From an uncultured Planktomarina sp. (GTDB taxonomy: Bacteria; Pseudomonadota; Alphaproteobacteria; Rhodobacterales; Rhodobacteraceae): 64,000 nucleotides of DNA. Every line of letters starts with the position of its first letter. The stretch's first letter is position 1. This document shows positions 39,361 through 52,438 of the stretch, piece by piece. The stretch spans positions 496,001 through 560,000 of the forward strand of contig CAJIZA010000001.1 in the NCBI GenBank assembly GCA_905181815.1, written 5' to 3'. A model generated the notes under the pieces. That model searched no databases, was not told where the DNA came from, and saw nothing but the letters and a program-made list of their open reading frames with translations. The position numbers were made by a program, and so were the translations under genes.

Positions 39361-40425
39361 ATGACACGCACTGTTGTAGAGTCAAAAACCAAAACAGCTG
39401 TAATTGGCTTTGATAAGCCCTTCTGCGTGATTGGTGAGCGCATCAATCCAACAGGCCGCAAGATCTTAAACGCAGAGCTGGAAGCGGGAGATTATTCTCG
39501 TGTGGAAGCAGATGCCATTGCGCAAACGGCCGCCGGTGCCTCGATCTTAGACATCAACTCAGGTGCCGTATTTTCAAACAAAATGGCCGAAGATCCACGC
39601 TATGCGGATAATAATTTTGTCGAGCCAACTTTGATGCGCTCCTTGATTGAGCGGGTGCAAGCTGTGGTTGACACGCCCTTGTGCATCGACAGCTCTGTAC
39701 CAGGAGCTTTGGAAAATGGCCTGGCCGCCGCCGAAGGTCGCCCACTTCTTAACTCGGTGACAGGAGAAGAAGAGCGGATGGAAATGGTGCTGCCATTGGT
39801 GAAAAAATACAATGTGCCTGTGGTGGCCATTTCCAATGATGACACCGGCATCTCCGAGGACCCTGACGTGCGCTTTGCCGTCGCCAAAAAGATTGTTGAG
39901 CGCGCCGCAGATTTTGGCATTCCAGCCCATGATATCGTGGTTGACCCACTGGTGATGCCCGTTGGTGCGATGGGATCCGCTGGTTTGCAAGTCTTCACTC
40001 TGGTCAGGCGTTTACGTGAGGAATTGGGCGTGAACACCACCTGCGGTGCATCGAATATTTCCTTCGGCCTGCCCAATCGTCATGGCATCAACAATGCTTT
40101 CCTGCCTATGGCCATGGCCGCAGGCATGACCTCAGCAATCATGAACCCGGTCGCCTTGCCAGTCAATCAAACCAAGATTGCCGAAAAGAAAGCCGCGATT
40201 GCGGCTGCGGGCATCATCTTGCCCGAGGTTATGGACGATGAAACTTTCGTCACGCTCTTCGGCATGGGATCCATGTCAAGCAAACCGGGTAAAGAAATGG
40301 AAGCCATCCGAGCCGCCAATTTCTTGATGGATTGCGACCCAAGCGGCGGGGCTTGGATCAATTTCAATAAAATTCCCGGCAGTGATGCGGGTGGTCGCGG
40401 TGGCCGCAAGCGCCGCCGAGGCTAA
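39361..40425 (+). CDS. Methyltetrahydrofolate:corrinoid methyltransferase
   Basis: A 354-residue pterin-binding TIM-barrel enzyme that moves methyl groups between tetrahydrofolate and a corrinoid protein. The N-terminal VIGERINPTGRKILNAELE near residues 22-40 and ILDINSGAVFSN near 61-72 are hallmark pterin-site motifs; CIDSSVPGALENGL and ISNDDTGISEDPDVRF follow. The basic tail (GGRGGRKRRRG) is typical of Rhodobacteraceae copies. No corrinoid protein or trimethylamine/betaine methyltransferase lies next to it, though these are its usual neighbours. AAGGA precedes the ATG. Its transcript ends in a long hairpin that overlaps the convergent aldolase gene by coding sequence. Confidence 0.87.
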   Translation: MTRTVVESKTKTAVIGFDKPFCVIGERINPTGRKILNAELEAGDYSRVEADAIAQTAAGASILDINSGAVFSNKMAEDPRYADNNFVEPTLMRSLIERVQAVVDTPLCIDSSVPGALENGLAAAEGRPLLNSVTGEEERMEMVLPLVKKYNVPVVAISNDDTGISEDPDVRFAVAKKIVERAADFGIPAHDIVVDPLVMPVGAMGSAGLQVFTLVRRLREELGVNTTCGASNISFGLPNRHGINNAFLPMAMAAGMTSAIMNPVALPVNQTKIAEKKAAIAAAGIILPEVMDDETFVTLFGMGSMSSKPGKEMEAIRAANFLMDCDPSGGAWINFNKIPGSDAGGRGGRKRRRG

Positions 40426-41433: not shown

Positions 41434-42393
41434 ATGGGACAGCACTATTTGGTCGCAGATGTGGGCGGCACCAATACCCGCGTAGCTCTGGCCAATGATG
41501 GAAAGCTGCAAACCCAAACAATTCACCGTTACCGCAACATAGATCAATCTGGCGTTGTCGGAATCTTGCAAAAATATCTTACTGAGCACGCCCCAGAGGC
41601 GCGCCTTGATGCCGTCTGTATTGACGTGGCCGGGCCTGTTGGCAATGACGAAGGTCAATTGACCAATCTCGATTGGACCGTCACGAGCGCTGAGCTCTGC
41701 GCCGCCACAGACGCAAAATTTGGCGCCATCCTTAACGATATGCAGGCCCAAGGCATGGCATTGTCGCATCTGCCCAGCACCGCCTTTAACAGCATCCTGA
41801 AAGGCACAGCCCAGAGTGGCAACCGCATGGTTGTCAATATTGGTACAGGTTTCAATTCGGCGGTGATCTTGGGCGAAGGGCCAAAACTCGCTGTGCCAGG
41901 CAGTGAAACGGGTCATGTCAATTTACCCGTGCCGAGCCCGCAGATCTATGAGCTGCATCAATTCCTAACCGAACGCTTTGGGTTCGCCTCGGCCGAAGAA
42001 GTTCTCTCTGGCCGCGGACTCGGGCATATTTATGGCTTTCTCGCAGCGCTTGACCCGCGCCAACCATTCCCGAGCTCCCATCATATTATGACCCAATTAC
42101 AAAGCGATCCTCATGCGCGCAAATCGATTGATATCATGCTGGAAGTTTTGGGCTGCGTCAGTGGCAACCTGGCACTGACACACCTGCCCTTTGGTGGTAT
42201 TTACCTCGTCGGCGGTATGGCACAAGTGTTGGCAGACTATTATCACGACAGCGCTTTTCACCGCGCCTTTGCGGCGAAGGGGCGTTTTGCTGAATTTATG
42301 GACCAATTCTCCGTACATTTGGTGCAAGACGATCACGCGCCCCTTATCGGATGCATCGCACATCTACAACATCACGGACATGACAAGCTCTGA
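41434..42393 (+). CDS. glk: Glucokinase
   Basis: A 319-residue ROK-independent glucokinase (E. coli Glk type) that phosphorylates glucose with ATP. The phosphate-binding start is YLVADVGGTNTRVALANDG near residues 4-22. CIDVAGPVGNDEGQLTNLDW near 69-88, NIGTGFNSAVILGEG and PGSETGHVNLPVPS follow, all typical. The ATG at 41434 has GGAAAAAAC directly upstream and is preferred to a TTG at 41416. It overlaps the next gene by 14 bases. An isolated sugar-entry kinase; Roseobacters often channel the product to the Entner-Doudoroff pathway (general knowledge, not seen here). Confidence 0.93.
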   Translation: MGQHYLVADVGGTNTRVALANDGKLQTQTIHRYRNIDQSGVVGILQKYLTEHAPEARLDAVCIDVAGPVGNDEGQLTNLDWTVTSAELCAATDAKFGAILNDMQAQGMALSHLPSTAFNSILKGTAQSGNRMVVNIGTGFNSAVILGEGPKLAVPGSETGHVNLPVPSPQIYELHQFLTERFGFASAEEVLSGRGLGHIYGFLAALDPRQPFPSSHHIMTQLQSDPHARKSIDIMLEVLGCVSGNLALTHLPFGGIYLVGGMAQVLADYYHDSAFHRAFAAKGRFAEFMDQFSVHLVQDDHAPLIGCIAHLQHHGHDKL

Positions 42394-43573
42394 CATTCTC
42401 CCGAACGCCCAAGTCCGCCAGCACTTCCTAGACCGTCATCAGCTGCGAAAACCACCGCTTGGCACGCGGCTTGATCAGACGCTTACGGGGCTTAATTTTG
42501 TGCAGGTCGACAGCATCAACAGCCTCGCACGGGCACATGATCTGATTCTTTGGTCCAGGCAACAAAGCTATCGCCCTCCCACATTGCGCAAAATGGTCGA
42601 CCACAGCCGCCAGGCTTTTGAAGCTTGGACACATGATGCCTCGATCTTGCCCATGGCGGCCTTTCCCCATTGGCGTCACAAATTCATCCGAGACGAAAAG
42701 CTGGTCCAAAAGCGATGGAAGGCTTGGCACCGTGGAGACTTTTTGGCACAGACCGAAAGCGTCCTAGACCAAATCGCCCGGCATGGACCTTTAGGATCGG
42801 GGGACGTCGGCGCCCAGGAACAGCGCGGAACCGGCGGCTGGTGGGATTGGCATCCCTCAAAAACCGCGCTCGAATATCTTTGGCGCACGGGCCACATCAC
42901 CGTCAGCCGGCGTGAGGGTTTCCGAAAGCTCTATGATCTTACAGAAAATGTCATCCCTAAAGATATTGGCAGCGCCCAACCGTCGTTTGACGAAAGCTTA
43001 GATTGGGCCTGCACAGGGGCATTGCGTGTGTTGGGCTTTGCCACCGCCAAAGAAATAAGCGACTTTTACGATTTTGTGACCGCCAGCGAAGCGCGGGCTT
43101 GGATCGCGCGTGGCCTTACATCAGGCGAGCTGCGCGAAATCAAAACCGAAGCGGCCAATGGCCAGCTGCGCGATCGGGTGATCTTCACGCAAGATTGGCC
43201 CAACCTACAAGAGCATTTGGCCGTCTCAAACCGTCTGCGCATTCTCAGCCCCTTTGATCCGGCCCTGCGCAACCGCGCACGCGCGGAGGAAATATTTGGC
43301 TTTTCCTATCGCATAGAGGTCTTCGTTCCGGCTGCACGGCGCCAATATGGCTATTATGTCTTCCCAATTATGGAAGGCAGCGCCCTTATCGCCCGCATAG
43401 AATTCAAGGCCAATAGAAAGAAAAATTTAATTGAAATTAAAGGTTTATGGCCCGAAGCGAAAGTGAATTTTAGCGCAGCGCGCATCGAAAGGCTTATCGC
43501 AGAGCTCAAACGCATCTGCCTTCTGGTTAAATGCCACGACATCTCTGGGATTGAGATCTTGCGGCGCATGTAA
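42380..43573 (+). CDS. AlkZ/YcaQ-like winged-helix DNA glycosylase family protein
   Basis: A 397-residue HTH_42-family protein. Biochemically studied members, AlkZ and YcaQ, unhook interstrand crosslinks or remove alkylated bases. Their catalytic motif is Gln-X-Gln or Gln-X-Asp. Here QVD is present in LNFVQVDSINSLARAHDLIL near residues 37-56, so the YcaQ-like form is suggested. Further typical blocks: EAWTHDASILPMAAFPHWRH near 80-99, LEYLWRTGHITVSRREGFRK near 173-192, RLRILSPFDPALRNRARAEE near 284-303. The C-terminal domain is complete. The ATG at 42380 overlaps glk by 14 bases. Activity is inferred from family only. Confidence 0.85.
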   Translation: MTSSDILPNAQVRQHFLDRHQLRKPPLGTRLDQTLTGLNFVQVDSINSLARAHDLILWSRQQSYRPPTLRKMVDHSRQAFEAWTHDASILPMAAFPHWRHKFIRDEKLVQKRWKAWHRGDFLAQTESVLDQIARHGPLGSGDVGAQEQRGTGGWWDWHPSKTALEYLWRTGHITVSRREGFRKLYDLTENVIPKDIGSAQPSFDESLDWACTGALRVLGFATAKEISDFYDFVTASEARAWIARGLTSGELREIKTEAANGQLRDRVIFTQDWPNLQEHLAVSNRLRILSPFDPALRNRARAEEIFGFSYRIEVFVPAARRQYGYYVFPIMEGSALIARIEFKANRKKNLIEIKGLWPEAKVNFSAARIERLIAELKRICLLVKCHDISGIEILRRM

Positions 43574-43587
43574 CGCAAGAATGGCGC

Positions 43588-46500
43588 TCAAATGTCCAGC
43601 TTGAGCGCCCCGCCCGCCTCGGCAGCTCGACTTTGGCAGAGGATGACCGTGTTTTCGCGCTGCGCCGACGAGAGCACAAAATCACGATGCTCAACCTCAC
43701 CGGACAGCAGCGTGCATTTGCACACGCCGCAAAGCCCATCGGCACATTTCACATCCACCGGTATCCCAGCCGCGATCAGCGCATCACTGGCCGATTGACT
43801 GGCCGTTACTGGAATTTTTTGCCCATTGGCCCGCTCGATCTCAAAGGGAAAGTTTTCCCATTCGGGCAACTCGGGCAGCGTAAAGAACTCCGCATGCAGC
43901 GCCGTCTCTGGATAACCAATAAAGCGGGCATGGTCTAAAATTGCGCTCATATAGGCACCTGGCCCGCAGACATACATGTGCGTTCCAGCCTCATAAGGCG
44001 GCACCGCTTGGGCAATATCGAGGCGCGTGCCCTGATCTGAGTAATGCCGGCTAACGCGATCGGCCCAAGCAAAATCGTCAAATGCCCTATCAAAGGCGGC
44101 CTTTGCCTTTTGACTGGCTGAATACATCAGCCGAAACGCCCCGCCCTGACGATGAAGCTCATGGGCAAATGCCAACATCGGCGTCACACCGATACCGCCG
44201 CCGAACAGCAAGGACAACTTGGCCGAAGCCTCCAATTCAAAGTGATTTATGGGTTTGGAGACAAAGACCCGCCGACCAGGCTCGAAAATGCGGTGCATCA
44301 ATTGCGAGCCTCCGCGCCCCTCGGGCTCCTGCAATACAGCAATTTCATAGCAGCTAAGATCGGCCGGATCGCCACACATGGAATATTGCCGTAAAAACTC
44401 AGGCGCGACAACAATGTCCAAATGCGCCCCCGCTGTCCACCGGGGTAATTCCGCGCCATCTACCGCCACAAGCCGGTATTTTTTAACGGCCCCCGGACAG
44501 TCTTCCACCTGAGCCACAGTCATTTGAATGACCGGCGATTCGTGATCATTTTGGTAAAGATGCAAATGATCCCGAGCGCCTGTGGCAGATTTCGCTTGAT
44601 AGACCTCTGCGGTGATCATGGCTTGATAGGCCTCAATTCCAGCCTCGCGGTCCATCGGCGCAGGATAGGGGTATGGGTGGGGAGCCAAGGGCGCAGGATA
44701 GACCGCCAAAGTTTGATCTTCGTATTTCAGATCCAGATTTTTTTGCAAAGAACGCGCATTGACTGGATGAGTTGTTGGGCGATACCCGCCCTCCTCGGTC
44801 AACTCCAGATCCCACCACCATTTTTTAACCGGATTGAGCGCGCCTCGTCCGGCCATATCATCCATTTTTGCCAAAACTGGTGCCATCTGCGGCACGGTCA
44901 TCGCCGCCCAGCGGAAGGGCGCTTCAGCGAAGAGCCCCTCCAAGTTCCATGGGCAGGTTTTCATGCAGCGTCCACACATAGCGCCGCCCGGGGTACTGAT
45001 GCGATAGCTGGCACATTTCTGACTGTCAGATTTCCAAATCTCATAGCCATTGAACATCAATTTCGGCCCAGCAGTAATCGCCCCGGATGGGCATTCGCGG
45101 GCGCATTTATTGCAGCTTTGGCAGAACCGCTGCAAACCAAAATCAATCGGCTTGTCATGGGCAAGTGGCAGGCTCGTGGTCACCACACCAGATTTCAACC
45201 GCGGACCCAGAAACGGGTTCAGGATTACTTCGCCAATTCGGCTCACCTCCCCCAGACCGGACAGCAAAAGCAGCGGCGGTTGCAGCACCTCACCATCCAT
45301 CACCGTATGCGCCTTGGCCGCATAGCCCAGGTTGCGAATATGTTGCGCCAAAATTCCGCCCAGAAGGGAGAACCTCAGATAGGCACGCATGGATTGCGCC
45401 ACAGAGATCCAATCATCGCCCGACGCACCTTCCATGGTTTCGAACCCTTGATCCACAATCATACTAATGGCTTGGTCATGGGGCGGGGCAATGGGTGCGC
45501 CCCGGGCGTCATGCGAATACCATGACCAGGCAGGGCAGCGCGACAGACCGGTGGCATCTATACCGAGAAAATAGCTGGCCCCTTTGATGTTATCGGCCGC
45601 CAGGTTAGGCGCAATCGGTTGGGCATGCGCCGCCGGCTCCCCGTCCTGCAAGAGCACAAATGCACCCAGCAGCCTGCGTTGCGCAGAGCTGGGCGCCGCC
45701 TTGCGCACGTAGTGACCAGCAGTCGCGCCCTTTTGCAGCGCCGGTCCCATATCGCCAAATTGCGCGCGAGCGAACATATCCGTGCGTTTGGGCACTCGGG
45801 CCACATTCGGCTCATCAATATAGGTGGTGGGGGTCTCAACGCGCTTGAGGGTTTCAAACGGATGGGCACCCTGCGCGTAGTCGCGCCGCGCATAGGGATC
45901 ATGGGAGCCACGGCTCGCGCCCCCATGGCGACCAAGACCCCAATCCAGCCCCATTCGGACGGATTTTGGCTGATCTGCGGCCAAAGGCAAATCCGGTGCC
46001 AGCGCCATATCCGTGGTGACAGCGGCCAAACCAAATCTTTGTTTCAACCAGGGATGGGTGATCTGGTCGCCCGCAACCTGTGCCAAACCGGCCTTGACCG
46101 CCAGGCGCGCCAAATCCACATCGCAGGTGGTGGCTGAATGCGCCCGAGCGCTATGCCCTAAAACTCTGATGTAATTCGCTAAAACAGTGGCAGTTTCGGC
46201 ACCCAGCAGTGCCGCACGTTCCGCCTGCGCGTCTTGAACCCAATCACAGCCGGTCTCGCCGCTTCGCGGATCGCGCCGATACGCCACCATAAAGACCAAC
46301 GCATATGCATGGTGATCCATCGGTTCTGGCTTGGCGGTCATGCTCTCTCGTAAATCCGCCATGATCATATCAATACCAGCGGCCAAAGTCTTGGTTTGGC
46401 GCGTTTGCAGCGCATGGGACAGGCGGTCGATTTGCGGGTTGCGCCGTGGCGCTTGGAGCCTGTCATCCGAGCGCAACGGCGCTATGCCGACCGTGGAAAT

Positions 46501-46788
46501 ATCATTAAAATAAGAGAAGGCTTTGAGATGGTTGGAGCGCTCTTGTGGGTCGTCGGGAATATCTGACGGCGCGGAATTTTGCGCACCATCACGCACCGCA
46601 TCCATCATAGCTTGAAACTCCGCCATAGCGGGCACCAAACTGTGACTGCCTGCGGGCCGCTCAAAGGATAGATCCGGCCATGGAGCCAGCCCCTCAAGAT
46701 CAGGCATCACCCGGCTGCGTTTTAGAATTTCCGTTGGATATCGTCCCATATGCACCGGTCGATTGCGATCAGAGAACAGCTTAGACAT
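43588..46788 (-). CDS. Self-sufficient reductive dehalogenase fused to a flavin/ferredoxin reductase
   Basis: A 1066-residue cytosolic fusion, matching the catabolic reductive dehalogenases BhbA and NpRdhA. Residues 1-690 form the B12-binding dehalogenase. It contains an internal repeat-like pair (LANYIRVLGHSARAHSATTC near 210 and LAQHIRNLGYAAKAHTVMDG near 480). Two [4Fe-4S] sets follow: CQSCNKCARECPSG near 555 and CGRCMKTCPWN near 600. No Tat signal is present, unlike respiratory RdhA. Residues about 745-975 resemble phthalate-dioxygenase-reductase (FGGGIGVTPMLAF; MYVCGPGAYM). The end is a plant-type [2Fe-2S] domain (CADGLCGVCKC near 1010). NAD(P)H would thus drive removal of halogen, probably from brominated or chlorinated phenolics (family inference). 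ATG at 46788 overlaps the XdhC gene. Confidence 0.9.
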   Translation of the reverse strand: MSKLFSDRNRPVHMGRYPTEILKRSRVMPDLEGLAPWPDLSFERPAGSHSLVPAMAEFQAMMDAVRDGAQNSAPSDIPDDPQERSNHLKAFSYFNDISTVGIAPLRSDDRLQAPRRNPQIDRLSHALQTRQTKTLAAGIDMIMADLRESMTAKPEPMDHHAYALVFMVAYRRDPRSGETGCDWVQDAQAERAALLGAETATVLANYIRVLGHSARAHSATTCDVDLARLAVKAGLAQVAGDQITHPWLKQRFGLAAVTTDMALAPDLPLAADQPKSVRMGLDWGLGRHGGASRGSHDPYARRDYAQGAHPFETLKRVETPTTYIDEPNVARVPKRTDMFARAQFGDMGPALQKGATAGHYVRKAAPSSAQRRLLGAFVLLQDGEPAAHAQPIAPNLAADNIKGASYFLGIDATGLSRCPAWSWYSHDARGAPIAPPHDQAISMIVDQGFETMEGASGDDWISVAQSMRAYLRFSLLGGILAQHIRNLGYAAKAHTVMDGEVLQPPLLLLSGLGEVSRIGEVILNPFLGPRLKSGVVTTSLPLAHDKPIDFGLQRFCQSCNKCARECPSGAITAGPKLMFNGYEIWKSDSQKCASYRISTPGGAMCGRCMKTCPWNLEGLFAEAPFRWAAMTVPQMAPVLAKMDDMAGRGALNPVKKWWWDLELTEEGGYRPTTHPVNARSLQKNLDLKYEDQTLAVYPAPLAPHPYPYPAPMDREAGIEAYQAMITAEVYQAKSATGARDHLHLYQNDHESPVIQMTVAQVEDCPGAVKKYRLVAVDGAELPRWTAGAHLDIVVAPEFLRQYSMCGDPADLSCYEIAVLQEPEGRGGSQLMHRIFEPGRRVFVSKPINHFELEASAKLSLLFGGGIGVTPMLAFAHELHRQGGAFRLMYSASQKAKAAFDRAFDDFAWADRVSRHYSDQGTRLDIAQAVPPYEAGTHMYVCGPGAYMSAILDHARFIGYPETALHAEFFTLPELPEWENFPFEIERANGQKIPVTASQSASDALIAAGIPVDVKCADGLCGVCKCTLLSGEVEHRDFVLSSAQRENTVILCQSRAAEAGGALKLDI

Positions 46789-47791
46789 GGGCCTGTCCTC
46801 GCAATTTTGCGGTAATGGCCGCCAGAATGGACAGGGCAATCTCTGCCGGGGTCCGGCTGCCGATGTCGAGCCCTACTGGCCCTTGAATCCGATCAAACGC
46901 CGCTGCGCTCACGCCGAGGTCCAACATGGACTGGCGACGCTTGGCATGGGTCCGAGATGATCCCAGAGCCCCAATATAAAATGCGTCGCTCGCAACCGCA
47001 TGTTGCAAGGCGGGTGTATCCATTTTTGGATCATGCGTGAGTGTCACAAGCGCCGTGCACCGATCCAAAGACAATCTCACCAAAGCCTCCTCTGGCCAAT
47101 CAACAATCACCTCATACCCGTCAAAACGAGCCGGGCTTGCGAAACTGTCGCGCGGATCAATGATAGTCACAAGATAGCCAGCCATCTGCGCCATTGGGGC
47201 CAAATATTGGGCAATATGCACCGCGCCAATAATCACCAGGCGCAGGGGTACTGTTTGGATATGGGTGAAGACATCACCCGAGAGTCCGCCACCCGCTTCA
47301 AAAACTGAAGGATCGGTTTGCTCTGAAATTAATTCGCGCTGCCAGCTGGACAAATCCAACCGCAATGCAATGGGCTTTCGAGCCGATTGGGCCTCAACAA
47401 GCCGCTCCAACACGGCTGGATCCATGCCCTGGCCCTGCCCCACGGGCTCGACCACCAGTTCAATCTCGCCGCCACAGGCCAGCCCGACGGCGAAAGCATC
47501 CACATCGGCAACCCCGTAGCGCAGACGCCGGCATTGCCCCGTCGCCAATGCCTCCGCCGCCTCTAAGACCACAGCCCCTTCGACACAGCCCCCCGAAACA
47601 GAGCCAAAAAAGCGGCCATCCTCACAAATGAGCATTTGAGCGCCAATGGGCCGGGGGGCAGATCCCCAGGTGGCCATAACAGTCGCCAGCGCCACTTTCT
47701 GTCCTTGCCGGTGCAGCCGCAAGGCCATTGCTGTCATATCTTCGGTGACTGCCATCTCAACTGCCCCAACATGTTCCAAATTGCTCTGCAT
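46781..47791 (-). CDS. XdhC/CoxI family protein
   Basis: A 336-residue protein with an N-terminal XdhC_CoxI domain (VALATVMATWGSAPRPIGAQ and GSVSGGCVEGAVVLEA near residues 34-84) and a C-terminal Rossmann-like domain (LRLVIIGAVHIAQYLAPMAQ; GALGSSRTHAKRR; IQGPVGLDIGSRTPAEIALS). XdhC normally binds and sulfurates molybdenum cofactor for xanthine-dehydrogenase-type enzymes, but none lies nearby. Its stop overlaps the dehalogenase start (ATGTCTAA), so it is translationally coupled to that gene. Starts at ATG 47791; TTG 47797 and ATG 47755 are alternatives, none with a strong ribosome-binding site. A role in the dehalogenase is suggested by position only. Confidence 0.85.
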   Translation of the reverse strand: MQSNLEHVGAVEMAVTEDMTAMALRLHRQGQKVALATVMATWGSAPRPIGAQMLICEDGRFFGSVSGGCVEGAVVLEAAEALATGQCRRLRYGVADVDAFAVGLACGGEIELVVEPVGQGQGMDPAVLERLVEAQSARKPIALRLDLSSWQRELISEQTDPSVFEAGGGLSGDVFTHIQTVPLRLVIIGAVHIAQYLAPMAQMAGYLVTIIDPRDSFASPARFDGYEVIVDWPEEALVRLSLDRCTALVTLTHDPKMDTPALQHAVASDAFYIGALGSSRTHAKRRQSMLDLGVSAAAFDRIQGPVGLDIGSRTPAEIALSILAAITAKLRGQAHV

Positions 47792-47867
47792 ATTCAAAGG
47801 CAGACTAAGAGCAATCGCGGCGGCCTGTCCAGTTGTGCCTCACAAACCAGCGCATTGGTCCAGCGCA

Positions 47868-48758
47868 TCACTCAGCGGTTAAGCCATTGCGGGCCAATAG
47901 CTCCAGATAGAGTGCCGCATGATCCAATCCTGCGCCATCCATCTCGTGAACTAAGCGATCAAAGCGGTCGCGGGTCTTTTGCAAAGTCGGCAAGCTCAGC
48001 CCAAAACTTTCTGCCTCGGCCAAAGCATTGTTGAGGTCTTTAAGCTGCAAAGCGCTGAGGCCACCGGGGGTGAAATCCAAATCGGTCATGCGTGCGCCGT
48101 GCAATTGTAAAATCGTGCTATCTGCGAACCCGCCTTTCAAGGCCGCACGCACGGCTGCGGGATCTGCGCCCCCTTTTTGCAGCATCAACATGGCTTCAGC
48201 CACCGCCGCAATCGTGACGCCGACAATGGCTTGATTGGCCAATTTTGCCAATTGCCCAGCGCCAATCGGTCCCACATGCACCGGCCGCCCCATGGCGCTA
48301 AGAGCGGCCGCAACAGTCTCGAAATCCTCTGGCGCGCCACCGGCCATAATCGCCAGGCTGGCCTCCTCGGCGCCTTTTGTCCCGCCCGATACGGGCGCAT
48401 CCACATAAGACACATTGAGCCGCGCCAAATCTTCAGCTGCGGCCCGCGCCTCTTCTGGCTTGATCGACCCCATCTCCACCCAGACTGTGCCGGGGCGCAA
48501 GGCTGAGCGCAACGCCTGATCGGCTTGCACCAACGCCCCGGTCGGCCCATCCGACAGCATGGAAATCACGATATCTGCCTCAGCTATCGCCTCGGCCGCA
48601 TGGTCCGCCACCACAGCCCCAAAGGCGCTTAAAGCTGCCGCCTTAGCTGCCGTTCGGTTCCAGACCGCCGTTGAAAACCCCGCCTGGCAAAGGTTCCGCG
48701 CCATGGGCGCGCCCATGAGCCCTGTTCCCAAGACTGCGATTTTCTGTTTGTTCGACAT
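47868..48758 (-). CDS. NAD(P)-dependent beta-hydroxyacid dehydrogenase
   Basis: A 296-residue member of the 3-hydroxyisobutyrate dehydrogenase family, paralogous to that at 33280. The Rossmann motif is VLGTGLMGAPMARNLCQAG near residues 9-27; the substrate site is DAPVSGGTKGAEEA near 119-132; the catalytic lysine is in LAKLANQAIVGVT. The C-terminal helix domain is intact. The ATG at 48758 follows AAGGGTCAAAGTC. It lies 76 bases upstream of the XdhC gene on the same strand, so it may start the same transcript, and it diverges from the sugar-acid operon. Substrate unknown; tartronate semialdehyde or a related hydroxyacid is plausible. Confidence 0.9.
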   Translation of the reverse strand: MSNKQKIAVLGTGLMGAPMARNLCQAGFSTAVWNRTAAKAAALSAFGAVVADHAAEAIAEADIVISMLSDGPTGALVQADQALRSALRPGTVWVEMGSIKPEEARAAAEDLARLNVSYVDAPVSGGTKGAEEASLAIMAGGAPEDFETVAAALSAMGRPVHVGPIGAGQLAKLANQAIVGVTIAAVAEAMLMLQKGGADPAAVRAALKGGFADSTILQLHGARMTDLDFTPGGLSALQLKDLNNALAEAESFGLSLPTLQKTRDRFDRLVHEMDGAGLDHAALYLELLARNGLTAE

Positions 48759-49008
48759 GACTTTGACCCTTTGCACATAATGCGGGCCTCGCCGCCCTTT
48801 GCGCATTTGTGCGGCTGGCCTTGGCAAATTGCAACCGTTTAAGTCACCGCGGTGACGCTGGACGCCCCAATCTCGCCCGCACCAGGGCCGCTACAGCGAC
48901 AGCAACAGCTGCGGTGACAAAAAATGCAAATTTGTTCAGAAATGTCATTGCCTAATGCCGGCGCGCCATGCACATTTGCCCTCTCAAAAGAAACGACAGG
49001 GGATCGAG

Positions 49009-49749
49009 ATGGGACGACTCGCAGGAAAACGCGCTTTGGTGACTGCCGCAGGACAGGGTATTGGCAGAGCCACCGCTTTGGCCATGGCCGCTGAGGGCGC
49101 CAAAGTCTTTGCCACAGACATAAACCCCGAAACTTTGGCTGAGGTACAAACCGCCAGCACTGGGCAGATTGAAACCTATGTGCTCGACGTTCTTGACCCG
49201 GCCTCTATACGGGACGGTATCGATCGCGCGCAGCCTGATATTTTGTTTAATGGCGCGGGTTTCGTGCATCACGGGTCCATAATAGATGCCAAGGAAGACG
49301 AATGGGATTTTGCCTTCAACCTCAATGTCCGCTCAATGATGCGCACCATTCAAGCCGCGCTTCCGGGCATGCTGGAACGGGGTGGCGGTTCTATCATAAA
49401 TATGTCGTCCGCCTGTTCCTCTGTTATCGGCGCGCCCAATCGCTTTATTTACGGCACTACCAAAGCTGCGGTGATAGGCCTGACCAAATCAGTAGCAATT
49501 GATTACATCAAGCAAGGGATTCGCTGTAATGCAATTTGTCCCGGCACAATTGAAAGCCCCTCCTTACACGACCGCCTGCGCGCCACTGGAGATGAGGTGC
49601 AAGCAATGAAAGACTTTGTCGCCCGCCAACCCATGGGCCGTATTGGAACAGCCGAAGAAATTGCAGCCCTTGCAGTTTACTTAGGATCGGATGAAAGTGC
49701 CTTCACTACCGCCACAACACAGGTCATTGATGGCGGCTGGTCCAACTAA
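49009..49749 (+). CDS. Short-chain dehydrogenase, probably for a 3-deoxy-2-keto sugar acid
   Basis: A 246-residue classical SDR. The cofactor motif is [19 protein letters not shown] near residues 13-31; [18 protein letters not shown] (catalytic serine) and [18 protein letters not shown] (Tyr-X3-Lys near 149-153) follow; the C-terminal CPGTIESPS and VIDGGWSN are typical. AGGGG precedes the ATG at 49009. It heads an operon with an IlvD/Edd dehydratase and an FAH hydrolase, the same enzyme trio that oxidises 2-keto-3-deoxy-L-fuconate or -rhamnonate in non-phosphorylative pathways. That assignment rests on context and general resemblance; the sugar is not proven. Confidence 0.88.
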
Positions 49750-49790
49750 TTGCAGGCGAGCAAAACTTTAACTTAACGAGGACGTTCCAC

Positions 49791-51578
49791 GTGTCAGATA
49801 ACAAACTTAAATTGCGATCCCAACAGTGGTTCAACAATCCCGACAATCAAGAGATGACAGCGCTCTATCTTGAACGCTATCTCAACTATGGTCTGACACG
49901 CCACGAGCTACAATCAGGCAAGCCAATCATTGGGATTGCCCAGACCGGCAGCGACCTCAGCCCCTGCAATCGGCACCATATTGAGCTGTCCAAGCGGGTG
50001 CGCGATGGGGTCATCGCCGCCGGCGGCACGGTGATTGAAATTCCAGTGCATCCCATCCAAGAGACAGGCAAACGCCCAACGGCGATGTTGGACAGAAATC
50101 TGGCCTATCTGTCTTTGGTTGAAACTCTATTTGGCTATCCCATTGATGGGGTTGTGCTCAATATCGGCTGTGACAAAACCACCCCGGCTTTGCTCATGGC
50201 GGCCGCTACGGTCAATATTCCAGCGATTGCCCTCTCCGTTGGCCCAATGCTCAACGGGTGGTTCGGCGGCAAACGCACAGGGTCCGGCACCATCGTCTGG
50301 AAGGCCCGAGAGATGCAGGCCGCGGGTGAAATTGATGATGACGGTTTCATGGACATGGTGGCCTCCTCTACCCCTTCTGTGGGCTATTGCAACTCCATGG
50401 GCACTGCCACGACGATGAATTCACTGGCTGAGGGTCTTGGTATGCAGTTGCCCGGCTCCGCCGCCATCCCGGCGCCCTATCGCGAAAGAGGACAGATCAG
50501 CTACCAAACCGGGCTCCGGATTGTCGATATGGTGCATGAGGATCTACGACCTGACCGCATTATGACCCGTGAAGCCTTCGAAAACGCCATTGTGATCAAT
50601 TCGGCCATAGGCGGCTCGACCAATGCGCCCATTCACCTCAACGGCGTCGCCAAACACCTCGGCGTCGCCCTGAACAATGATGATTGGCAAAACCTAGGTC
50701 ATGAGGTGCCACTTTTGGTCAATCTTCAGCCGGCGGGCGAATATCTTGGCGAAGATTTTCACCGGGCCGGGGGCGTACCAGCGGTGGTCGGCGAATTGCT
50801 CGCCGCAGGGCTGCTGCCACATCCGGATGCCAAGACGGCCAATGGCAAAACCATCGCTGAAAATTGCCGAGATTGTCGCAGCACCAATAGCGATGTGATC
50901 CGGCAAGTCGCAGCGCCAATGGTGGGAGCCGCCGGCTTCATCAATCTGAAGGGTAATCTGTTTGACAGCGCGATCATGAAAACTTCGGTGATCTCGCAAG
51001 AATTTCGCACGCGCTACCTGACTGATCCGGCCAATCCAAATTGCTTTGAGGGGCGTGCCATCGTCTTCGACGGGCCAGAGGACTTCCATCATGGCATTGA
51101 TGATCCAAGCCTCAATATTGACGAAAATTGCGTCTTAATCATGCGGGGCGCCGGTCCAATTGGCTATCCCGGCGGGGCGGAAGTGGTGAATATGCGCCCG
51201 CCCTCCTATCTTTTGACCAAGGGAATCACCTCCCTGCCCTGCTTAGGTGATGGCCGGCAATCGGGCACCTCAGGATCCCCTTCGATCCTAAACGCCTCCC
51301 CTGAAGCCGCAGATGGCGGCGGCTTGGGCCTGGTGCAAACGGGCGATATCATCCGCATTGATTTGAATGCCTGCACCGCCGATATGTTGGTCGAACCGGC
51401 CGAGCTTGAGCGCCGCAGGGCCGCTCTTGGCCCACGCCCCTTCACCCCTGACAGCCAAACCCCTTGGCAAGAATTGTTCCGCGAAAAAGTCAGGCCCTTC
51501 TCAGAAGGCATGACTCTGGACGGGGCGCATGAATATCAAGACATCGCGCGCAAACATATGCCGCGTGACAACCACTAG
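49791..51578 (+). CDS. IlvD/Edd-family sugar-acid dehydratase
   Basis: A 595-residue iron-sulfur dehydratase. The family splits into dihydroxyacid dehydratase, 6-phosphogluconate dehydratase and sugar-acid (arabonate, xylonate, fuconate) dehydratases. The N-terminal region [20 protein letters not shown] (near residues 33-52) and the SPCNRHH motif carry cluster and metal ligands; [15 protein letters not shown] (near 124-138) and [20 protein letters not shown] (near 199-218) supply other Cys ligands. [13 protein letters not shown]-type block is here [20 protein letters not shown]. The sequence fits the sugar-acid group by context. GTG start at 49791, with GAGGA upstream. Expected product: 2-keto-3-deoxy sugar acid. 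Confidence 0.9.
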
Positions 51579-51589
51579 GAGTTTTTTTC

Positions 51590-52438
51590 ATGAAGTTAGT
51601 CCGCTATGGCGAAACTGGCGCAGAGCGCCCCGGTATGATCGACCCAGCAGGCGTGTTGCGCGACCTTTCGGGTCATGTGACGGATATCGATGCAAACATG
51701 CTCGGCGATGAGGCTTTAGCCCGCCTTCGGGCACTGGATCCAAGCGCCTTACCCGCGGTCACCGGATCACCGCGCTTCGGCCCGGTTGTTGGAGATATAG
51801 GCAAGTTTCTCTGCATCGGTCTCAATTATTCCGATCACGCGGCAGAAACCGGGGCTGCCATTCCTGAACATCCCATTTTGTTTTTCAAAGCCAATTCCGC
51901 CATTGTCGGCGCCAATGATGATGTGGTCATGCCCCGCGGCTCGACCCATACGGATTGGGAGGTGGAACTCGGGGTGGTGATTGGCACGGCCGCAAAATAT
52001 GTCAGCGAAGAAGACGCTTTGAACCACGTGGCAGGCTATTGCATTGTGAACGACGTATCAGAGCGGCATTTCCAAACTCAGCTTACTGGGCAATGGACCA
52101 AAGGGAAAAGCTGCGACACCTTCGGCCCCACTGGCCCCTATCTCGTGACACGCGATGAAATTGCCAATCCACAGGCTCTGGACATGTCACTGGATGTGAA
52201 CGGCAAACGAATGCAAACCGGCAATACAGCGACCATGATCTTCACGGTTGCGCAAATTATTAGCCACCTGTCTCATCTCATGACGCTCCACCCTGGTGAT
52301 ATCATCACCACCGGAACCCCTCCAGGCGTCGGAATGGGCATGAAGCCGGATCCGGTCTACCTCAAGCCCAGCGATGTGATGGAGCTCGAAATCTCAGGCC
52401 TTGGCATACAACGCCAGACCGTGCGCCAAGACGCATAA
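51590..52438 (+). CDS. Fumarylacetoacetate hydrolase family protein, probably a diketo-sugar-acid hydrolase
   Basis: A 282-residue FAH-fold hydrolase. The metal-dependent core reads FLCIGLNYSDHAAETGA near residues 71-87, FKANSAIVGANDDVVMPRGS near 100-119, then VNDVSERHFQTQLTGQWTKGK and CDTFGPTGPYLVTRDEI near 168-200, and GDIITTGTPPGVGMG near 232-246. The acidic ligands of the divalent metal are in DWEVELGVVIG near 123-133. In the L-rhamnonate and L-fuconate pathways this enzyme cleaves the 2,4-diketo-3-deoxy acid to pyruvate plus a hydroxyacid. It follows the dehydratase by 11 bases. Operon order SDR-dehydratase-hydrolase supports that role. Confidence 0.9.
   Translation: MKLVRYGETGAERPGMIDPAGVLRDLSGHVTDIDANMLGDEALARLRALDPSALPAVTGSPRFGPVVGDIGKFLCIGLNYSDHAAETGAAIPEHPILFFKANSAIVGANDDVVMPRGSTHTDWEVELGVVIGTAAKYVSEEDALNHVAGYCIVNDVSERHFQTQLTGQWTKGKSCDTFGPTGPYLVTRDEIANPQALDMSLDVNGKRMQTGNTATMIFTVAQIISHLSHLMTLHPGDIITTGTPPGVGMGMKPDPVYLKPSDVMELEISGLGIQRQTVRQDA

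What the first reader, a model, noticed from the sequence alone, without database searches (positions are those of the whole stretch)
43588..47791. Self-sufficient reductive dehalogenase coupled to an XdhC-family gene
Seen: a 1066-residue protein with two 4Fe-4S motifs, a flavin-type reductase, a C-terminal 2Fe-2S domain and no Tat signal, overlapping by 8 bases the stop of an XdhC/CoxI gene. Known: BhbA- and NpRdhA-type fusions take electrons from NAD(P)H and remove halogens from phenolics. XdhC usually serves molybdenum hydroxylases, and none is present. Inference: XdhC may have been recruited for cofactor handling or protection of the dehalogenase, and the cell may debrominate marine phenolics aerobically. 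The dehydrogenase at 47868 may be a third member.
Basis: partly seen in the sequence, partly recalled or inferred. Interest (0 to 1): 0.75.

Follow-up and report, generated by a model that had tools for sequence, protein, structure and literature searches.

The report
Known-type debrominase beside carbon-monoxide-operon leftover
A marine bacterium of the Planktomarina group carries a common type of vitamin-B12 enzyme that probably strips bromine from phenols; the accessory gene next to it is best explained as a leftover from a neighbouring carbon-monoxide-dehydrogenase-type operon rather than as a partner of the dehalogenase.

Summary
Window 43588-46788 (-) encodes an intact 1066-aa self-sufficient reductive dehalogenase (TIGR02486 over cut-off; NpRdhA E=2e-150) with its iron-sulfur cysteines and Y/K/R catalytic residues, overlapping the xdhC stop by 8 bases.

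The "XdhC recruited by the dehalogenase" reading is not supported. In four sister Planktomarina genomes the locus reads HIBADH-coxG-coxS-coxL-coxM-coxD-coxE-xdhC-rdhA, so xdhC is the tail gene of a form II CO-dehydrogenase-type operon. In the window's lineage the cox genes sit elsewhere without an xdhC, leaving xdhC beside rdhA. Outside the genus, the xdhC orthologue had cox genes nearby in 12 of 19 loci examined and rdhA in 0 of 19; XdhC lay near rdhA in 0 of 98 other genera. The window lacks molybdenum hydroxylases, but the genome has four.

Fused dehalogenases of this kind occur in 149 of 394 Rhodobacteraceae genomes searched, and marine relatives are already characterised (PMC10463259, PMC13101508). 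Verdict: new member of a known kind; modest interest.

The parts
43588..46788 (-). rdhA: self-sufficient (reductase-fused) catabolic reductive dehalogenase, 1066 aa
   Evidence: TIGR02486 197 bits over cut-off 160; PDB 4ras E=2.4e-150; Foldseek best 14 hits all NpRdhA
45091..45123 (-). first 4Fe-4S motif, residues C556-C566 (CxxCxxCxxxC)
   Evidence: invariant in 11 and 30 aligned sequences
44953..44976 (-). second 4Fe-4S motif, residues C605-C612 (with C592 upstream)
   Evidence: invariant in 11 and 30 aligned sequences
43864..44541 (-). phthalate-dioxygenase-reductase-like flavin/NAD(P) domain, about residues 750-975 (boundaries approximate)
   Evidence: matches PDB 2pia, 6kbh, 7ylr and, below cut-off, flavin-reductase models; GGGIG kept
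43591..43842 (-). C-terminal 2Fe-2S ferredoxin domain, about residues 983-1066
   Evidence: PF00111 E=4.9e-9; C1015/1020/1023/1051 invariant
46781..47797 (-). xdhC: Mo-hydroxylase maturation-factor family, tail gene of the ancestral cox operon (ATG start at 47791 possible); stop overlaps rdhA start by 8 bases
   Evidence: PF02625 and PF13478; next to coxE in four sister genomes and with cox genes in 12 of 19 other-genus loci
47868..48827 (-). HIBADH-family dehydrogenase; marks the other edge of the missing cox block, not a partner of rdhA
   Evidence: PF03446/PF14833; in sister species separated from xdhC by coxG-S-L-M-D-E

Best explanation
rdhA encodes an NAD(P)H-driven, B12-dependent aryl debrominase of the self-sufficient catabolic type. 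Electrons pass from NAD(P)H to a flavin, then the C-terminal 2Fe-2S cluster, then two 4Fe-4S clusters, then the corrinoid, which removes ortho-bromine (or iodine) from phenolics, leaving phenols for ordinary aromatic catabolism (shown for a relative; inferred here). xdhC is the maturation gene of a form II CO-dehydrogenase-type operon (coxG-S-L-M-D-E-xdhC). In a Planktomarina ancestor rdhA came to lie directly behind that operon. In the window's lineage the coxS-L-M-D-E block then moved to another chromosomal place, leaving HIBADH-xdhC-rdhA. xdhC most likely still serves the relocated Mo-hydroxylase in trans; its tight coupling to rdhA is positional.
For: Enzyme; NpRdhA F291/S422/M423/Y426/K488/R552 correspond to F339/S466/M467/Y470/K532/R596 here (counted on the alignment), all invariant. 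Operon history: four sister genomes show HIBADH-coxG-S-L-M-D-E-xdhC-rdhA (L024, L026, L036, L040; Pfam of L036). The window genome and G019 carry coxS-L-M-D-E elsewhere with no xdhC beside it (L180, L281). The window CoxL is 94% identical to the sister CoxL against 86% to the best of three form II CoxL from other genera compared, consistent with a move rather than a second acquisition. G015 has xdhC with coxM and coxS at the same place (same glucokinase, aldolase and methyltransferase neighbours) and no rdhA there. XdhC orthologue in 324 of 394 family genomes against the fused RDase in 149 of 394, so at these thresholds at least 175 have XdhC without the RDase. Near rdhA, XdhC was found in 0 of 98 other genera and 0 of 76 other-genus loci. 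Window-clade XdhC keeps 99-100 of 106 columns conserved in 28 other-genus orthologues; XdhCs of the sister lineages keep 95-100.
Against: Seven of 19 other-genus xdhC loci show no cox gene within the 12-kb stretch, so the link to cox is strong but not universal; the 19 were taken mostly from the best matches, not at random. In G015 coxL, coxD and coxE are missing from the stretch, so that operon is incomplete. xdhC stayed with rdhA when the cox block left, and the tight spacing persists in the clade, so a retained link cannot be excluded. No activity was tested. Coenzyme and substrate are inferred from relatives. The structure model is mediocre (mean pLDDT 68, part of the catalytic core under 50).
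Confidence: 0.83

Rival explanations
1. XdhC was recruited to handle a cofactor (B12, flavin or iron-sulfur) of the dehalogenase or to protect it.
For: Overlapping or near-abutting genes in the 9 junctions read; pair kept in 10 of 10 readable clade genomes; xdhC stayed with rdhA when cox left.
Against: 0 of 98 other genera have XdhC near rdhA; at least four family genomes hold the RDase with no XdhC orthologue at E<=1e-50 (G026, G032, G078, G100); xdhC is the tail gene of a cox operon in sister species; two catabolic RDases of marine Rhodobacteraceae were made active in E. coli with B12-transport genes as the added helpers (PMC10463259, PMC13101508, parts read), although E. coli has XdhC-family genes of its own (control).
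Confidence: 0.05
2. The form II Mo-hydroxylase (true substrate unclear) and the dehalogenase form one pathway, for example hydroxylation and debromination of the same aromatic compound, and the shared operon in sister species reflects that.
For: Contiguous, same-strand coxG-S-L-M-D-E-xdhC-rdhA in four sister genomes; CoxL motif AYRGAGR marks form II, whose role is stated to be unclear (PMC13203968, passages); a different Mo-hydroxylase cluster follows rdhA in Ruegeria and two other genera, and a related cluster lies divergently beside the rdhA of another Planktomarina genome, G009 (L031, CoxL 66% to the Ruegeria one).
Against: CoxL-type genes lie in the flank of rdhA in 5 of 98 genera (one a weak 23% hit) against about 2 expected from 5.45 copies per genome, three of the five sharing one cluster: suggestive at most; rdhA has no recurrent neighbour (most frequent family 8 of 98); the window's lineage separated the two.
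Confidence: 0.1
3. The enzyme acts on something other than halogenated phenolics.
For: No aromatic-pathway genes recognised beside rdhA in the window clade; rdhA is widespread and mostly stands alone.
Against: Substrate and catalytic residues of NpRdhA kept; PMC10463259 states that all catabolic RdhAs characterised to date are specific for ortho-halogenated phenols; the rdhA of G006 lies beside an aromatic-ring hydroxylase, though that hydroxylase was not found near rdhA in the 98 genera; own genome has pobA and hmgA.
Confidence: 0.07

Closest known systems
JtRdhA, self-sufficient catabolic reductive dehalogenase of Jhaorihella thermophila (PMC10463259; introduction, first part of results and discussion read)
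   Same: No Tat signal, duplicated cobalamin-domain half, two 4Fe-4S clusters, fused phthalate-dioxygenase-reductase domain with 2Fe-2S; conserved catalytic Y/K/R; marine host
   Different: Sequence not compared here; this host is Planktomarina; this gene sits behind xdhC
Ros_A3X954 debrominase of Roseobacter sp. MED193 (PMC13101508; abstract, first part of results, discussion and passages read)
   Same: Marine roseobacter RDase without Tat signal; locus L119 of the same strain encodes a fused RDase 64% identical to this one (whether it is accession A3X954 was not checked)
   Different: No XdhC or cox hit in L119; reported as highly oxygen-sensitive
NpRdhA of Nitratireductor pacificus (PDB 4ras, 6zxu, 6zy1)
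   Same: RDase half, about 37% identity in the Foldseek alignment; catalytic and substrate residues kept
   Different: Lacks the fused reductase
BhbA of Comamonas sp. 7D-2 (as described in PMC10463259)
   Same: Reductase-fused catabolic RDase used in aerobic degradation
   Different: Lies in a bromoxynil-degradation cluster on a plasmid; sequence not compared here
Form II (coxSLM) CO-dehydrogenase-type operon with XdhC-family maturation gene
   Same: coxG-S-L-M-D-E-xdhC in four sister genomes; AYRGAGR motif
   Different: In the window's lineage the structural genes are elsewhere and only xdhC remains

Membership tests
Self-sufficient catabolic reductive dehalogenase (BhbA/JtRdhA type) | RDase family domain | tested here: met
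   TIGR02486 197.4 bits, cut-off 160.35; NpRdhA E=2.4e-150
Self-sufficient catabolic reductive dehalogenase (BhbA/JtRdhA type) | Duplicated cobalamin-domain half | tested here: met
   Query residues 391-537 hit the DNA encoding the N-terminal half at 27% identity, E=6e-9 (L001); both NpRdhA halves align
Self-sufficient catabolic reductive dehalogenase (BhbA/JtRdhA type) | Two 4Fe-4S motifs with all cysteines | tested here: met
   eight cysteines invariant
Self-sufficient catabolic reductive dehalogenase (BhbA/JtRdhA type) | Catalytic Y426/K488/R552 equivalents | tested here: met
   Y470/K532/R596, read from the alignment; invariant
Self-sufficient catabolic reductive dehalogenase (BhbA/JtRdhA type) | Fused phthalate-dioxygenase-reductase domain with C-terminal 2Fe-2S | tested here: met
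Self-sufficient catabolic reductive dehalogenase (BhbA/JtRdhA type) | No Tat signal | tested here: inconclusive
   N-terminus read by eye only; no predictor available
Self-sufficient catabolic reductive dehalogenase (BhbA/JtRdhA type) | B12 pocket intact in a structural model | tested here: inconclusive
   Fold matches NpRdhA (target-normalised TM about 0.72) but pLDDT is under 50 in part of the core
Self-sufficient catabolic reductive dehalogenase (BhbA/JtRdhA type) | NADPH-dependent debromination, oxygen tolerance | not testable with these tools
   needs enzyme assay
XdhC/CoxI maturation factor | XdhC_CoxI and XdhC_C domains | tested here: met
   PF02625 E=7.5e-28, PF13478 E=1.3e-39
XdhC/CoxI maturation factor | Meets an equivalog cut-off for xanthine dehydrogenase or aldehyde oxidoreductase XdhC | tested here: not met
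   TIGR02964 93.7 of 161.6 bits; NF045664 186.7 of 350 bits; filed as an XdhC-family protein only
XdhC/CoxI maturation factor | Linked to a Mo-hydroxylase operon | tested here: met
   In four sister genomes and in 12 of 19 other-genus loci; not at the window's own locus
Form II CO-dehydrogenase-type operon (sister species) | coxS-L-M order and AYRGAGR motif | tested here: met
Form II CO-dehydrogenase-type operon (sister species) | CO oxidation | not testable with these tools
   needs growth or enzyme assay; role of form II stated to be unclear in PMC13203968 (passages)

The most novel reading that the evidence does not exclude
The capture of rdhA at the tail of a form II Mo-hydroxylase operon in Planktomarina is functional: the poorly understood form II 'CO dehydrogenase' and the debrominase act on the same natural brominated aromatic compounds in seawater, and XdhC remains coupled to rdhA because both enzymes are made together under the same signal.
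Probability: 0.09. Interest if true: 0.6.

Novelty: new member of a known kind. Interest (0 to 1): 0.3.

Why it matters
It removes a tempting but poorly supported link (XdhC as a helper of a B12 enzyme) and shows how a gene pair can look like a functional unit after an operon breaks up. It also shows that fused dehalogenases, of several types, are present in 18 of 20 Planktomarina genomes searched (match at E=0) and in 149 of 394 Rhodobacteraceae genomes, which makes debromination by pelagic roseobacters worth measuring in seawater.

Tried and rejected
Rejected: XdhC as partner of RdhA. Rejected: HIBADH as third member. Tested, no clear excess: adjacency of rdhA with Mo-hydroxylases (CoxL-type hits in 5 of 98 genera, one weak, against about 2 expected). 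Led nowhere: promoter and terminator scan, at chance level; repeats at the HIBADH-xdhC junction, none; Rfam scan of the window at gathering thresholds, one tRNA only, so no cobalamin riboswitch recognised; neighbour families of rdhA in 98 genera, none recurrent (top 8 of 98, a short-chain dehydrogenase; a MarR regulator in 7 of 98); an aromatic hydroxylase beside rdhA in G006 was not found near rdhA in the 98. The structure model was too weak to judge the B12 pocket. Literature: no paper in the library holds both 'reductive dehalogenase' and 'XdhC'; the one paper holding 'reductive dehalogenase' and 'Planktomarina' has both only in its reference list; the RCA-cluster genome paper PMC10675870 has no word beginning 'dehalogen' in its main text. 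Other searches, seen as listings.

G011 (rdhA cut by the contig edge) was not counted for XdhC adjacency. Of the 149 genomes with a match (none of them Planktomarina) were fetched for neighbour analysis, also with shorter flanks at some contig ends; the others were not examined. The two sets overlap. In the tree 8 of the 11 clade A copies were used.
Full report
OBSERVATION. The open reading frame 43588-46788 on the minus strand encodes 1066 residues from an ATG. It exceeds the cut-off of the reductive dehalogenase model TIGR02486 (197 against 160 bits). Its first part matches NpRdhA (4ras, E=2.4e-150), and residues from about 750 match phthalate-dioxygenase-reductase-like proteins including 2pia. 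A C-terminal Fer2 domain is present. Counted on the alignment, the NpRdhA residues F291, S422, M423, Y426, K488 and R552 (named in PMC10463259) correspond to F339, S466, M467, Y470, K532 and R596. These, the eight 4Fe-4S cysteines and the four 2Fe-2S cysteines are invariant in 11 Planktomarina sequences and in 30 sequences from wider relatives (numbering one lower). The xdhC gene upstream carries both XdhC domains, and its TAA stop overlaps the rdhA ATG in ATGTCTAA, 8 bases.

ORGANISM. The window lies in a 2.54-Mb genome in 7 contigs. Two congeneric contigs have the lengths of records titled Planktomarina sp., and one congener is a single 3,288,122-base contig, which I recall as the size of P. 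temperata RCA23.

DISTRIBUTION OF THE ENZYME. All 20 genomes searched in the genus have some match, and 18 of 20 have a match at E=0. Among these 18, one gene is cut by a contig edge (G011), one is split between contigs (G005) and one is in two frames (G002). Eleven genomes carry the window type (75-100% identity; here clade A); seven others carry types 58-64% identical, and two clade A genomes hold a second, 56-59% copy. In a midpoint-rooted tree of 116 sequences the eight clade A copies included are monophyletic (support 1.0), while the nine other Planktomarina copies fall in several places, which suggests repeated exchange of rdhA. In the family, 149 of 394 genomes have the fused enzyme at E<=1e-250. 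Across 98 genera no neighbour family within 4 kb recurs in more than 8 loci, so the gene mostly stands alone.

THE XDHC LINK. Within clade A xdhC is immediately upstream in 10 of 10 genomes where that side can be read; in G005 it is on a contig that also holds the rdhA start. In the nine junctions read the genes overlap by 8 or 4 bases or are 2 bases apart (spacing). Outside Planktomarina, XdhC was not found within the fetched flank of rdhA in any of 76 loci or of 98 genera; these two sets overlap, and flanks are shorter at some contig ends. The sister species of clade A explain the pair. In L024, L026, L036 and L040 the order on one strand is HIBADH, coxG, coxS, coxL, coxM, coxD, coxE, xdhC, rdhA (coxL is in pieces in L024 and HIBADH in L040). 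Pfam names these genes in L036: COXG, [2Fe-2S] CoxS, MoCoBD CoxL, FAD-binding CoxM, AAA CoxD, VWA_CoxE. CoxL carries AYRGAGR, which with the S-L-M order is the form II signature (PMC13203968, passages; PMC10675870, section on CO oxidation, which states that all genomes of Planktomarina species C2 to C8 encode CODH II).

THE BREAK. In the window genome, G005, G013, G018 and G019, HIBADH lies directly upstream of xdhC. The coxS-L-M-D-E genes are elsewhere: contig C5 in the window genome (L180) and position 1.01 Mb against 1.89 Mb for rdhA in G019 (L281). Neither relocated cluster has xdhC beside it. The window CoxL is 97% identical to G019, 94% to two sister species and 86% to the best of three form II CoxL from other genera compared, so the block appears to have moved within the lineage. 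G015 (78% complete), which lacks an intact rdhA, has xdhC with coxM and coxS at the corresponding place, beside the same methyltransferase, aldolase and glucokinase genes and with no rdhA; coxL, coxD and coxE were not found in that stretch, whose contig ends inside coxS. In other genera the xdhC orthologue (324 of 394 genomes at E<=1e-50) has cox genes within the fetched stretch in 12 of 19 loci and rdhA in 0 of 19; the 19 came mostly from the best matches. Window-clade XdhC keeps 99-100 of 106 conserved columns, like the XdhC of the sister lineages (95-100), so it looks to be under the usual constraint of the family. The genome has two further XdhC-family genes and four Mo-hydroxylase large subunits, so an employer for XdhC exists outside the window.

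HOW IT MOST LIKELY WORKS. Shown: an intact reading frame, ligands, catalytic residues and domain order. Inferred from characterised relatives: NADPH reduces the flavin, electrons pass through the 2Fe-2S and two 4Fe-4S clusters to the corrinoid, and ortho-bromine or iodine is removed from phenols, for JtRdhA also in air (PMC10463259, introduction, first part of results, discussion). A marine Roseobacter RDase debrominates 2,6-dibromophenol (PMC13101508, abstract, first part of results, discussion) but was highly oxygen-sensitive, which is a caution against assuming aerobic activity. The products could feed 4-hydroxybenzoate hydroxylase (over cut-off in 11 of 20 genomes including the window's) or homogentisate dioxygenase (over cut-off in 10 of 20 including the window's). 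These pathways are not strictly tied to rdhA: G003 has clade A rdhA and neither enzyme was found in it.

STRUCTURE. AlphaFold2 on a 30-row alignment gave mean pLDDT 68. Foldseek's first 14 hits are all NpRdhA chains, target-normalised TM 0.71-0.73. The iron-sulfur region and part of the core are below pLDDT 50, so the model neither confirms nor denies the B12 pocket; the sequence evidence carries that point.

A TEST OF A WIDER LINK. In Ruegeria and two other genera a Mo-hydroxylase cluster follows rdhA, and in Planktomarina G009 a related cluster lies divergently beside it (L031). Over 98 genera, five loci have a CoxL-type gene in the flank (L201, L216, L232, L266 and, at only 23% identity, L239), against about two expected from 5.45 copies per genome (169 matches in 31 genomes) with about 15 kb of flank in genomes of about 3.8 Mb; three of the five share one cluster. 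That is suggestive at most. Because this count was corrected upward on recheck, the odds of the shared-pathway reading were raised from 0.08 to 0.10 and those of the best explanation lowered from 0.85 to 0.83.

VERDICT. A real and intact member of a known enzyme class, common in its family; the XdhC coupling is best read as the remnant of a cox operon.

Noticed in passing
L040/L021 (G002): The clade A rdhA of this MAG is in two overlapping frames (residues 1-613 and 600-1066), either a sequencing error or a broken gene.
   Followed up: no
L041 (G015 contig C6, 30392-30783): Only N-terminal (3-71) and C-terminal (1006-1066) scraps of an rdhA were found, in a neighbourhood with an aromatic-ring hydroxylase gene; G006 (L028) has an intact rdhA beside a hydroxylase of the same cluster.
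   Followed up: partly
window 42191-43573 (+): AlkZ-like DNA glycosylase gene convergent with rdhA; in L024 and L036 the corresponding stretch still aligns over most of its length but is broken into shorter ORFs, and none was found in L033 and L280.
   Followed up: partly
window 48955-52438 (+): Short-chain dehydrogenase, IlvD/EDD dehydratase and FAA-hydrolase (431 bits to 2,4-didehydro-3-deoxy-L-rhamnonate hydrolase, cut-off 500) form a sugar-acid cassette found beside HIBADH in the window's sub-clade; a relative of the first gene also lies in L040.
   Followed up: no
window 39361-40425 (+): Methyltetrahydrofolate:corrinoid methyltransferase family gene (386 bits, cut-off 259) in the same window as the B12-dependent dehalogenase.
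   Followed up: no
L201, L216, L232; L031: rdhA is followed by a coxM-coxS-coxL-like Mo-hydroxylase cluster (CoxL 88-93% identical to that of L051, Ruegeria conchae) in three genera, and a related cluster (66%) lies divergently beside rdhA in Planktomarina G009; function unknown.
   Followed up: partly
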